Shown: positions 34,341 to 37,777 of the stretch, piece after piece
Position numbering within the stretch: the stretch's first letter is position 1
Layout: each line of letters begins with the position of its first letter
Assembly (NCBI RefSeq): GCF_003814835.1
Contig: NZ_RKRG01000001.1
Location: 62,001-126,000 of the forward strand
From: Methanobrevibacter gottschalkii DSM 11977
GTDB taxonomy: Archaea; Methanobacteriota; Methanobacteria; Methanobacteriales; Methanobacteriaceae
Length of the DNA: 64,000 nucleotides
Reading direction: 5' to 3'
Made by a program: the position numbers and the translations under genes
Notes under the pieces: generated by a model
The model's input: only the letters and a program-made list of their open reading frames with translations
Told to the model about the DNA's origin: nothing
The model's database searches: none

Positions 34341-35111
34341 ATGGATTCGAAAATAGCTAAAGCAGATGCAAAACATGAAAAATTACATTCCCAGAAAAGA
34401 AAGAAAGATAGTTCTGATAGGAAAGTGGGGAATGAAATTTTCGATAAAATAACATTAGAAACACTATATAAATTAGCTAACCAAGGACATATCGATATTT
34501 TAAATGGTGCTATTAGCACCGGTAAAGAAGCCAATGTACTTACAGGCATTACTGATGATGGAAAATTTATAGCAGTCAAAGTTTATAGAATTGCTACATC
34601 TGATTTTAAAAAAATGGATTATTACCTTAAAGGAGATCCTAGATTTAATCTTAAAACCAAAAATAAGAGAAAAATTATTTATTCATGGGTTACAAAAGAA
34701 TTTAAAAATTTAACCCGCCTTGAATCTGCAGGAGTTAAAGTACCTCACCCAATTACAAGTGCAAATAATGTATTATTAATTGAATTTATTGGAGATGAAA
34801 ATGGAAATCCTGCACAACCTGTTAAGAATCAACCACCTAAAAATTCTGAAGAATTTTTCAAGAAGTTACTTATAAATCTAAAATTATTTGTAAATGAAGC
34901 AAAATTAGTGCATGGCGATTTGTCAAATTATAATATATTAAATAAAGATGAAGAGCCTGTAATTATTGATGTTTCACAATCTGTTGTTTTAGATAATCCG
35001 ATTTCAAGAGAACTTCTTGAAAGAGACATTAACACACTTGTTCGTGAATATACTAAACTTGGTGTTAAAACTAGTTTTGAAGAAATTTGGGAATATGTGA
35101 ATCCCCGGTAA
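34341..35111 (+). CDS. rio1: RIO1-type serine/threonine protein kinase
   Basis: 256 residues. The ATP loop is STGKEANVL, the hinge region follows ESAGVKVPHP, the catalytic loop is VHGDLSNYNIL and the metal loop IIDVSQSV. RIO1 acts in late maturation of the small ribosomal subunit. The start is the ATG for MDSKIAKADAKH; an upstream TTG in frame lacks a ribosome site. In many archaea the next gene is the KH (Dim2) protein, which here lies 3.9 kb away. Confidence 0.93.
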   Translation: MDSKIAKADAKHEKLHSQKRKKDSSDRKVGNEIFDKITLETLYKLANQGHIDILNGAISTGKEANVLTGITDDGKFIAVKVYRIATSDFKKMDYYLKGDPRFNLKTKNKRKIIYSWVTKEFKNLTRLESAGVKVPHPITSANNVLLIEFIGDENGNPAQPVKNQPPKNSEEFFKKLLINLKLFVNEAKLVHGDLSNYNILNKDEEPVIIDVSQSVVLDNPISRELLERDINTLVREYTKLGVKTSFEEIWEYVNPR

Positions 35112-35135
35112 AAGATGTTTTACTTAGATGAAAAA

Positions 35136-35154
35136 TACTTTTCAAATGATCTCT
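35136..35154 (+). promoter_or_regulatory. Shared 19-bp motif, copy 2
   Basis: TACTTTTCAAATGATCTCT, one base different from the copy before top6B. It lies 24 bp after the rio1 stop and 39 bp before the ATG of the integrase remnant. Just ahead of it is a small perfect hairpin, GTAAAA-GATG-TTTTAC. Confidence 0.4.
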
Positions 35155-35193
35155 GTTAACATTTTTTATAGAAAAACTATAAAGGTGTTAACT

Positions 35194-35604
35194 ATGAGTA
35201 ATAACGAACTGTTGAAAACCGTTGCTATAAGCTGTAACCATTCAGAAAAAACACAAAGAATATATAGATTAGAATTGACCCAATATGCTTCCTATTTTAA
35301 TCAGAATCTGCATGAACTATTAGCTGAAGCAGAATAAGATGAAAACAACAACATTAAATGGAAACACCACCGTGTAAAAGCAAAATTAACAGAATACCGA
35401 AACCACCTTCTGCAAAAATATGCGTTAAACACAGTCAAAAAAAAAAACACATGACTGGCATGACTAAATTTTACAGATCCTATGACTTTGAAATACAGAA
35501 ATTGCCTATGATAAATGAAAATACAATGCAAAAACCACAGCAGATTTATTTTAAGGACTTGCCGGACAAGGAAATTATAAAAGAGGATGTAATTTTATTT
35601 TTTT
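35194..35604 (+). pseudogene. Broken tyrosine recombinase (integrase), N-terminal remnant
   Basis: An intact ribosome site (AAGGTG) and ATG open a reading frame resembling the core-binding domain of tyrosine recombinases (KTQRIYRLELTQYASYF, then LHELLAEAE). It stops at TAA 35335-35337. The same frame continues in register (IKWKHHRVKAKLTEYRNHLL) until a run of A at about 35441-35452. There the frame must shift to continue (FYRSYDFEIQKLP, then IYFKDLPDKEIIKE). The catalytic domain with its R-H-R-Y residues is missing. So there is at least one nonsense mutation, one frameshift and a 3' deletion. It marks a past insertion downstream of rio1. Confidence 0.72.
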
Positions 35605-35755
35605 AATTTTTCAGGAAAAATAAACTGTATTTCATTATATCTAACTATAGCTAACTCTGAATCTGACTGTTGCATTTACTTATCTTTTTTATTGTTCTCA
35701 TAACAATTATGACACTAGATAATTGAGTGGGATACATTCTAATCCAACAAGACAT

Positions 35756-37042
35756 TTATCGCAAACATCCTATTGGAATAACTTTCACTCCATCAGCTCT
35801 TGTATAAGCCAGTTCACCACCAGTAATCACCGCTAGAAAACTTGGCTCTTCTAAATCAATCTTTTTGTTTTCAACACTTTTTTTAATCAAATCTTTTAGT
35901 TTAAGTAAATTTCCTGCTCCATTATCGATTTCTCGGTTGCCCAATTTAAATTCTATCAATGCATATCTGCCATCATTTAGATATATGACACAATCCGCTT
36001 CAAGCCCGCTGTCGTCATTGTAATATAATACTTTACCATTGACTGAACTTGAGTAAACAAGCAGGTCACGTATGCATAGATTTTCAAATATGAATCCGAA
36101 TGTTTCGAAATCTTTCAATAATTTTTCAGGTGTTAGGTTAAGACTTGCCACTGCTATTGATGGGTCAATGAATTCTTTTTTGTAGGATTTTCTGATGGTG
36201 TTTGCGGATCTGATGTTTGGTGACCATGCAGGAATGTTTTGGATTACATATAACCTTTCAAGAGCATCAATATAGGAATTGAATGTAGGCAATGAAATAT
36301 CAGCATATTCTGTTTTTATATCTTTCATTAATGTTTTTTTAGTTGCAAGTGTAGATATGTTTCTAGCGTAGGATTTTAGAATAGTTTTTACTCTTTGAGG
36401 ACTGCGTTTAACCCCATCCACTTCTGAAACATCACTATTGCATATTATATCGATATAATTTGATACAATTGCCAATTGCTGTTTTTTGGTTTTTTTGTTT
36501 AGTGATTCTGGCCATCCCCCTCTGCATGCGGCAAATATCAAATCAGGTATTGTTAAGTTTGAAGTTACACCATCAATGTTTAAATCATCATTATCAAACA
36601 AATCGATTAATGAGATTTCACCTGTGGATTCACCACTTTCATACAGACTCATTGGGCGCATCACTATCCTTTTTATTCTGCCTGCTCCCGAGTGCACAAT
36701 TTTACTTTCATCAACTATTGTCGATCCTGTTAAAATATACAGTCCGTCTTCATCTGATTCATCTACCAAATATCTAACAGTACCCCACAGTTCTGGTGCC
36801 ATCTGCCATTCGTCAATCAGCATTGGCTTTTCACCTTTCAGAAGTTCTATGGGATTGGTATCTGCAAGTTTTAAGTAAGATTTTCCATGAACGGGATGTT
36901 GTAGTTCTTTTAGGCTTTTGCATTGCTGTTTTGCTGTTGTAGTCTTACCACACCACTTCGGACCAGTTATTAGAACAGCACCCATGTATTCTAGAGATTC
37001 TTTCAGTTCCTGGTCAGTATATCTTGGTAAATATTTTTTCAT
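35756..37042 (-). CDS. AAA ATPase with DUF4143 C-terminal domain
   Basis: 428 residues. The Walker A motif GPKWCGKTTT is near residue 27 and Walker B is PMLIDEWQ. A winged-helix-like middle follows, and the C-terminal part (LEADCVIYLNDGRYALIEFKLG) resembles the nuclease-like DUF4143 fold, with D and ExK present. I use the second ATG (MKKYLPRYTDQE), preceded by GTGAT; the earlier ATG at 37072 lies within the upstream 23-bp repeats. Proteins of this family occur in many copies in gut microbes, often with toxin-antitoxin or mobile regions. Function unknown. Confidence 0.8.
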   Translation of the reverse strand: MKKYLPRYTDQELKESLEYMGAVLITGPKWCGKTTTAKQQCKSLKELQHPVHGKSYLKLADTNPIELLKGEKPMLIDEWQMAPELWGTVRYLVDESDEDGLYILTGSTIVDESKIVHSGAGRIKRIVMRPMSLYESGESTGEISLIDLFDNDDLNIDGVTSNLTIPDLIFAACRGGWPESLNKKTKKQQLAIVSNYIDIICNSDVSEVDGVKRSPQRVKTILKSYARNISTLATKKTLMKDIKTEYADISLPTFNSYIDALERLYVIQNIPAWSPNIRSANTIRKSYKKEFIDPSIAVASLNLTPEKLLKDFETFGFIFENLCIRDLLVYSSSVNGKVLYYNDDSGLEADCVIYLNDGRYALIEFKLGNREIDNGAGNLLKLKDLIKKSVENKKIDLEEPSFLAVITGGELAYTRADGVKVIPIGCLR

Positions 37043-37053
37043 ATTAATCACTT

Positions 37054-37168
37054 TTTTATATTTTTCACCCATTTTATTTTATACTTTTCACTAAATTTAT
37101 TTTATACTTTTCATCATATAAATTTTATGTTTTTCATATAATTTATTTTATACTTTTCATCCATTTAA
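37054..37168 (-). repeat. Five tandem 23-bp direct repeats (iteron-like)
   Basis: The core TTTTATACTTTTCA (plus-strand reading) starts at 37054, 37077, 37100, 37123 and 37146, an exact period of 23 bp. Copies 2, 3 and 5 have identical cores; copy 1 (TTTTATATTTTTCA) and copy 4 (TTTTATGTTTTTCA) differ at one or two bases. The last nine bases of each unit vary. The array begins 12 bp upstream of the ATPase start codon and reads on that strand as TGAAAAGTATAAAA, with a TATA-like core in each unit. It could bind a protein cooperatively (autoregulation or an origin) or serve as repeated promoter elements. Confidence 0.9.
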
Positions 37169-37777
37169 TCATCGATAAAAATTTATTGCACAAAATTAAT
37201 AAACATTAAAATTCAAATTTAACTACAAAAATGTTGCCAGAATAGCTGTAAGTAAAACATCTTTCCTACGGGAATATGTTAACCCTAAATTTTAATTAAA
37301 TTATTACTTAAAAGAAACCTTAGTATTAATATTTTAATTACATAATGTAACCTATTTCTTCCAATTGCTTATTTTCATTATGTTAAATAAAATTTTTACA
37401 ACTTATTTTCAATTACAGAGATTAAAACTAATTTAAAATCTATAATTTAATAATTAAGAAGTAAAATTAGAATTAAATATTATAATAATGATTAATTATG
37501 ATTAATTAATTATTTTAAGTTTTTATCATCCAATTAACTAAAAAATAAGAATAATTTCCTATTTTAAAGTATAATTGAATTTTAATACATGTTTTTTTGT
37601 ATAAAACTGTATATATTTCTTTTTAATAAATTAAACAATAATTAAAAAAAATACAAATAATATATTAAACTGTACAATAAATATAAATAATATTATACCA
37701 TATTATTTAATAGACTTAACTTTGTTGATATTAAAATTATTAACAGGTTAAGTCGAAAAATATAGAGGTTATATTAA
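37169..37777. other. 609-bp AT-rich intergenic stretch between ATPase and mtrH
   Basis: I see no gene. The sequence is well over 75 percent A+T, with palindromic patches such as TAATGATTAATTATGATTAATTAA (37487-37510 region) and many TATA-like strings. The right end should hold the mtrH promoter: AAATATAAATAA at 37679-37690 is a good TATA box, about 90 bp before the start codon. The left part is bounded by the 23-bp repeats. The length is unusual for this gene-dense window. Confidence 0.5.
37713..37754 (+). promoter_or_regulatory. Inverted repeat at the predicted 5' end of the mtrH message
   Basis: Arms GACTTAAC (37713-37720) and GTTAAGTC (37747-37754) are perfectly complementary, and an inner GTTGAT/ATTAAC helix can extend the fold. 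The TATA box at 37679-37690 predicts transcription starting near 37710. The hairpin would therefore form at the very start of the leader, 12 bases before the ribosome site AGAGGTTAT. It may stabilise the message or be a regulator site. Confidence 0.5.

What the first reader, a model, noticed from the sequence alone, without database searches (positions are those of the whole stretch)
37054..37168. Iteron-like array of five exact 23-bp repeats directly upstream of a DUF4143-type ATPase gene
The core TTTTATACTTTTCA recurs at a strict 23-bp spacing five times, ending 12 bp before the start codon. Exact spacing near two DNA turns implies a protein that binds side by side, or repeated TATA elements, since each unit reads AGTATAAAA on the gene's strand. 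Such arrays are typical of plasmid origins and autoregulated mobile genes. The array is next to an integrase relic.
Basis: partly seen in the sequence, partly recalled or inferred. Interest (0 to 1): 0.72.

Follow-up and report, generated by a model that had tools for sequence, protein, structure and literature searches.

The report
Self-tagging repeats before defence-like ATPase genes
A very common but uncharacterised defence-candidate ATPase gene carries, in both archaea and bacteria, a string of DNA repeats spaced exactly 23 base pairs apart just before its start, most likely the docking array through which the protein binds side by side and controls its own gene.

Summary
The array is real: five imperfect copies at exact 23-bp spacing (37054-37168), ending 11 bp before the start codon of an AAA_14+DUF4143 ATPase. 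Only three of the five 14-bp cores are exact. It is not local. Among 130 unique intact homologs with usable upstream sequence (archaea, Bacteroidota, Bacillota and others), 23 bp is the dominant upstream repeat lag in 123. After clustering at 75% protein identity it is 57 of 62. The controls gave 1 strong lag-23 case in 132 other genes. The unit sequence turns over (49 distinct types) while the spacing does not. Two other DUF4143 subfamilies in this genus have their own fixed spacings, 40-41 and 34-35 bp. In bacteria the array abuts the -35 or -33 promoter element. The protein models as an AAA+ ATPase, a winged helix and a PD-(D/E)XK-like domain, and unit bases covary with the first residues of the recognition helix. 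PADLOC lists the family as PDC-S01, an unvalidated but very abundant defence candidate. Best reading: a cognate operator array for autoregulation. Iteron and tandem-TATA readings are not supported. Here the gene and array sit in a 2.2-kb integrated element, with an empty site in a related genome. No publication describing the arrays was found in the library searched.

The parts
37054..37168 (-). Array of five 23-bp units (37054-37076, 37077-37099, 37100-37122, 37123-37145, 37146-37168); gene-strand unit about TGAAAARTATAAAATAAATTTAG
   Evidence: lag-23 score 39
35756..37042 (-). ATPase gene, 428 aa, AAA_14 + DUF4143; PADLOC family PDC-S01
   Evidence: Pfam (DUF4143 2.5e-32, AAA_14 7.2e-16); PADLOC (PDC-S01 1.5e-62); start chosen by homolog alignment
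36593..37021 (-). AAA+ ATPase region (about residues 8-150): Walker A GPKWCGKTT, Walker B LIDEW
   Evidence: invariant columns in a 57-sequence alignment; model
36170..36400 (-). Winged helix (about residues 215-291); helix 251-263 read as the recognition helix (36254-36292)
   Evidence: AlphaFold2 model pLDDT 91; unit covariation
35759..36109 (-). C-terminal domain (residues 312-428) read as PD-(D/E)XK-like: E320, D350, E364-x-K366
   Evidence: model; E320, E364, K366 invariant and D350 nearly so; Foldseek matches to Cdn1/Card1; PMC12988326 describes PDC-S01 as ATPase + PD-(D/E)XK
35182..35606 (+). Decayed tyrosine-integrase relic
   Evidence: tblastn 51-60% identity to a 253-aa integrase ORF in L091; weak Phage_int_SAM_1 match
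35111..35126 (+). Left terminal inverted repeat AAAGATGTTTTACTTA
   Evidence: only two exact copies in the genome
37249..37264 (-). Right terminal inverted repeat AAAGATGTTTTACTTA
35089..35105 (+). Left copy of the target repeat GGGAATATGTGAATCCC, in the 3' end of the RIO1 kinase gene
   Evidence: single copy in G025 (L278), which lacks the insert
37270..37285 (+). Right copy of the target repeat GGGAATATGTTAACCC

Best explanation
The array is a cognate operator for the ATPase encoded right next to it. Subunits bind side by side, one per 23-bp unit, each using its winged helix and probably the wing to read a bipartite site (two constrained cores, roughly CAAA and TAAA). Because the array lies on or directly beside the core promoter, occupancy controls the gene's own transcription, most likely as cooperative self-repression that ATP state or an invader can relieve. 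Shown here: the array, its family-wide 23-bp register, turnover of unit sequence with the protein clade, promoter adjacency in bacteria, and residue-base covariation. Inferred: direct binding, one protomer per unit, repression, the nucleotide switch, and any defence role.
For: Lag 23 dominates upstream of 123 of 130 unique homologs, 57 of 62 after clustering at 75% identity and 26 of 28 at 65%. One of 132 other genes has a strong lag 23. Single plasmid homologs at 27-43% identity still show lag 23 as best. The only factor common to hosts from several phyla is the gene itself. The unit changes with the protein (Spearman 0.51), and 49 unit types share the same register. Adjacent copies differ least at unit positions 0-2 and 14-17 and most in the linkers, which points to constraint on cores. 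Pro252, at the start of the recognition helix, goes with A at unit position 1: 18/19 versus 11/29 representatives, Fisher 6.7e-5; pairs 251x21, 251x20 and 252x1 are among the top five. The array abuts TTGAC(A) within 9 bp in 11 of 14 Bacillota-type loci, and a TAnnTTTG box lies 19-39 bp beyond it in 27 of 35 Bacteroidota. Sister subfamilies have their own fixed periods. The genome has no other array of this unit except before a decayed gene copy.
Against: No binding or expression data exist. Seven of 130 homologs do not have 23 as the best lag (one has 24), and relatives near 25-28% identity in Runella and Rhizobium have none. The partial correlation with the recognition helix is small (r 0.13), similarly scoring pairs lie elsewhere (207, 340, 344), and shared ancestry is not fully removed. 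Repression rather than activation rests on position only; in bacteria a site just upstream of -35 would also suit an activator. The -35/-7 matches were counted without a shuffled control.
Confidence: 0.68

Rival explanations
1. The ATPase binds the array but as an activator, like the signal ATPases MalT and IniR: ligand and ATP drive oligomerisation on the repeats next to -35 and recruit RNA polymerase.
For: Bacterial arrays sit immediately upstream of -35/-33. Foldseek matches include a maltose-system regulator structure and SSO1545, and IniR, similar to SSO1545, activates iniBAC (PMC5760070).
Against: In Methanobrevibacter the array usually ends 9-60 bp before the start codon and would overlap the transcription start region. 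The family lacks the MalT-type sensor domain.
Confidence: 0.18
2. The array is bound by a host protein or nucleoid factor, not by the ATPase.
For: No binding data; units are A/T rich.
Against: The same 23-bp register occurs in archaea and in several bacterial phyla with unrelated transcription machinery, while the unit follows the ATPase clade. No other array of this unit is in the genome.
Confidence: 0.06
3. The array is part of a recombination or replication element (iterons, or an end recognised by an integrase).
For: Gene and array lie in a 2.2-kb integrated element with terminal inverted repeats and an integrase relic. In close orthologs the conserved block covers the ORF plus the array with unrelated flanks. 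Foldseek also matches Orc1/Cdc6 bound to origin DNA.
Against: The element ends are the inverted repeats at 35111 and 37249, outside the array. Integrase homologs occur near few family members (14 sequences hit, several of them overlapping records), whereas arrays are near-universal. The window locus is chromosomal and no replicon was seen.
Confidence: 0.04
4. Tandem TATA elements or neutral slippage repeats.
For: Units read AGTATAAAA, and neighbouring copies can be identical.
Against: Bacterial arrays have the same register outside the -35/-10. Substitutions accumulate in linkers rather than cores and the period survives complete sequence turnover.
Confidence: 0.02

Closest known systems
PDC-S01 (PADLOC candidate defence family; AAA_14-DUF4143 ATPases)
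   Same: The window gene matches the PADLOC models at 1.5e-62; ATPase fused to a PD-(D/E)XK-type domain, single gene, patchy across archaea and bacteria.
   Different: The passages read in the two papers do not mention upstream arrays. Antiviral activity of PDC-S01 is itself unvalidated.
RptR repressor of a defence island (PMC12255303)
   Same: Represses its own defence promoter by binding a series of direct repeats; full repression needs two intact repeats.
   Different: RptR is a separate homodimeric repressor reading 9-bp repeats with a 6-bp palindrome. Here the presumed effector ATPase would itself be the binder and the unit is a 23-bp direct repeat.
IniR and MalT signal-transduction ATPases
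   Same: DNA-binding P-loop ATPases that act at promoters; the IniR AAA+ domain resembles SSO1545, the second Foldseek match here.
   Different: They regulate other operons as activators and have helical-repeat sensor domains; here the target is the gene itself and the C-terminus is nuclease-like.
Plasmid iterons with Rep initiators
   Same: Regularly spaced direct repeats about two helical turns apart next to a DNA-binding protein gene.
   Different: Chromosomal, promoter-adjacent, no replicon; the protein is not a Rep family member.

Membership tests
PDC-S01 / AAA_14-DUF4143 ATPases | Profile match to PDC-S01 and to Pfam AAA_14 + DUF4143 | tested here: met
PDC-S01 / AAA_14-DUF4143 ATPases | Intact Walker A/B and PD-(D/E)XK motif residues | tested here: met
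   K33, D77, E78, E320, E364, K366 invariant, D350 nearly; fold
PDC-S01 / AAA_14-DUF4143 ATPases | Antiviral activity | not testable with these tools
Autoregulatory operator array | Repeats located on or beside the gene's own core promoter | tested here: met
   for bacteria; for archaea only the distance to the start codon was measured
Autoregulatory operator array | Protein has a DNA-binding domain that covaries with the repeat | tested here: inconclusive
   winged helix in the model; covariation at 251/252 significant by Fisher test but phylogeny only partly controlled
Autoregulatory operator array | Protein binds the array and changes transcription | not testable with these tools
   needs EMSA, footprint, reporter
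Plasmid iteron origin | Located on a replicon or at a replication origin with an initiator gene | tested here: not met
   chromosomal contig of 729 kb between RIO1 and mtrH genes; an empty site exists in G025
MalT/IniR-type STAND regulators | C-terminal helical-repeat sensor domain | tested here: not met
   residues 312-428 model as an alpha/beta domain

The most novel reading that the evidence does not exclude
The array is more than an operator. It holds a self-assembled ATPase-nuclease filament in a set register on the cell's own copy of the gene, acting as the resting store and trigger of an anti-virus system. Each lineage continually changes its private repeat sequence so that paralogs in one genome do not cross-react, while subfamily geometry (23, 34-35 or 40-41 bp per step) stays fixed by the filament.
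Probability: 0.15. Interest if true: 0.9.

Novelty: new variant of a known kind. Interest (0 to 1): 0.74.

Why it matters
One study ranks PDC-S01 as the fourth most common defence category across prokaryotes (9,986 archaeal and 29,494 bacterial instances), yet its function is unvalidated (PMC12988326). A near-universal, precisely spaced DNA array before these genes gives the family a concrete, testable ligand: which DNA it binds, in what geometry, and how specificity co-evolves. It also offers many natural protein-DNA specificity pairs on one scaffold, and a simple DNA signature for finding and sub-typing the family.

Tried and rejected
Iteron origin: rejected (chromosomal; the array follows the gene, not a replicon). 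Tandem TATA boxes: rejected as a general account (bacterial promoters lie beside the array). Small ORFs: on the gene strand most units read ATG/GTG AAA AGT ATA AAA TAA (MKSIK-stop), but 23 is not a multiple of 3 and bacterial units lack this, so dropped. Neutral slippage: rejected (period kept through complete sequence turnover; cores conserved, linkers variable). Array as the mobile-element end: rejected, the inverted repeats lie outside it. No convincing solved structure matched by sequence (best E 0.12). Subfamily 3 had no relative in viral contigs. For subfamily 2 in bacterial and viral contigs the 39-41 bp lag is mostly weak (top lag in about 13 of 42), so the 40-41 claim is made only for Methanobrevibacter. 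Runella and Rhizobium relatives at 25-28% identity lack any array. Literature searches for DUF4143, COG1373, PDC-S01 and upstream repeats found no description of the arrays; most subscription papers are not in that library. The first control run was void through a script error and was repeated.

Full report
Observation. The array is present at 37054-37168: five copies at exact 23-bp spacing without indels. Three of the five 14-bp cores are exact; the others carry 1 and 2 mismatches. On the gene strand the unit is about TGAAAARTATAAAATAAATTTAG. The gene's ATG, by homolog alignment, is at 37042-37040, 11 bp from the array. The lag-23 score is 39, while 300 shuffles reached at most 15 over all lags. 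In the 1.88-Mb genome a two-unit pattern with up to 3 mismatches occurs only here and in front of a decayed second copy of the same ATPase gene at C2:337846.

The gene. It encodes a 428-aa AAA_14 + DUF4143 protein. PADLOC assigns it to PDC-S01 (1.5e-62), a single-gene candidate defence family proposed by 'guilt by embedding', described as an ATPase fused to a PD-(D/E)XK-type domain and as the fourth most common defence across prokaryotes, but not validated (PMC12988326). An AlphaFold2 model from 57 homologs (mean pLDDT 91) shows an AAA+ region, helices and a hairpin that I read as a winged helix (215-291, recognition helix 251-263), and a C-terminal alpha/beta domain with E320, D350 and E364-x-K366, all invariant or nearly so. 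Foldseek places it nearest the archaeal ATPases PAB2304 and SSO1545, with Orc1/Cdc6-DNA, STAND and Cdn1/Card1 structures further down.

The array is a family trait. Homologs were collected from 67 same-genus genomes and from named genomes of Bacteroidota, Bacillota, Spirochaetota, Verrucomicrobiota, Methanosphaera and others, plus seven viral-collection contigs. For each gene the best self-match lag (12-40) in the 250 bp upstream was computed. Over 130 unique intact genes with at least 100 bp upstream, 23 is the best lag in 123, strong (score 15 or more) in 114. After clustering at 75% protein identity it is 57 of 62, and at 65% it is 26 of 28; a uniform expectation of 1 in 29 gives about 2e-77 and 3e-36. 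Of 132 other genes in the same stretches one has a strong lag 23, in a stretch whose best lag is 12. Single plasmid homologs in B. ovatus (43%), Collinsella (39%), Prosthecochloris (31%), Lentilactobacillus (30%) and Actinomyces (27%) also have 23 as best lag, though the last is weak; Runella and Rhizobium relatives at 25-28% do not.

Register fixed, sequence free. Arrays hold about 2 to 8 units, median 3.8. There are 49 distinct unit types, yet after rotation they share a pattern, roughly yCAAAAnnyAAARTRAAATA with a variable linker (alignment score 1376 against 1144 plus or minus 4 for position-shuffled units). Neighbouring copies differ least at unit positions 0-2 and 14-17 and most in the linkers. 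This looks like a bipartite binding site, not slippage.

Cognate recognition. Unit distance follows protein distance (Spearman 0.51). After removing overall divergence the best protein window is residues 251-263, the presumed recognition helix, though the residual correlation is small (0.13) and a loop at 109-115 ties with it. Column by column, among 48 representatives below 75% identity, the top five residue-base pairs are 282x13, 251x21, 344x14, 252x1 and 251x20. Pro252 accompanies A at unit position 1 in 18 of 19 proteins against 11 of 29 without it (Fisher 6.7e-5; 10 of 11 against 2 of 15 at the stricter threshold, 1.7e-4). Residue 282 lies in the wing. These tests do not fully remove shared ancestry.

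Position. In 14 Bacillota-type arrays a TTGAC(A)-like -35 starts within 9 bp of the array end in 11. In 35 Bacteroidota arrays the TAnnTTTG -7 box lies 19-39 bp past the array end in 27, so the -33 region falls at about the last half unit (no shuffled control). In Methanobrevibacter the array usually ends 9-60 bp before the start codon. The array therefore sits on or beside the core promoter.

Other subfamilies. In the same genus a second DUF4143 subfamily (also PDC-S01 in PADLOC) has a dominant upstream lag of 40-41 bp in 27 of 30 loci, with several unrelated unit sequences. A third has 34-35 bp in 19 of 29, and the weakest of these carry palindromes around a TTTATATA box. In bacterial and viral contigs the second subfamily's 39-41 bp signal is mostly weak. 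Different subfamilies thus appear to impose different spacings.

Mobility. In the related genome G025 the RIO1 gene end joins window position 37270 directly. The window genome therefore carries an insert of about 2,165 bp (35105-37269), flanked by target repeats (GGGAATATGTGAATCCC / GGGAATATGTTAACCC) and 16-bp terminal inverted repeats that have no other exact copy in the genome. It holds an integrase relic, the ATPase and the array. Close orthologs in other species share mainly ORF plus array, with unrelated flanks. The array lies inside the element, so it is cargo and not an element end.

Mechanism. The simplest account is that the ATPase binds its own array side by side, one protomer per unit, and regulates its own promoter; repression is favoured by overlap in archaea and by analogy with RptR, which represses its defence promoter through direct repeats (PMC12255303). 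Activation in the manner of MalT or IniR (PMC5760070) is the main rival. Direct binding, stoichiometry, the sign of regulation and any antiviral role are inferred.

Noticed in passing
window 35105-37269: A 2.2-kb integrated element with 16-bp terminal inverted repeats and duplicated target at the 3' end of a RIO1 kinase gene, with an integrase relic; the empty site is seen in genome G025 (L278).
   Followed up: yes
L217-L246 (upstream of DUF4143 subfamily 2 genes): Upstream repeats with a dominant 40-41 bp period in 27 of 30 Methanobrevibacter loci and unit sequences that differ between clades.
   Followed up: partly
L247-L276 (upstream of DUF4143 subfamily 3 genes): Upstream repeats at 34-35 bp in 19 of 29 loci; the closest relatives of the query instead have palindromes (TGGTCA..TGACCA) on both sides of a TTTATATA box.
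   Followed up: partly
G000 C2:331000-343300 (L124 and neighbours): A cluster of several DUF4143 ATPase genes, including a decayed copy of the window gene that still keeps two to three of its 23-bp units.
   Followed up: partly
L091:4380-5138: A 253-aa integrase ORF about 470 bp upstream of another family member; homologs of it lie near several close orthologs of the window gene, and L024 shares the same terminal repeat.
   Followed up: partly
L104 / L141: One homolog has a 24-bp lag in place of 23; worth checking whether its protein linker differs.
   Followed up: no
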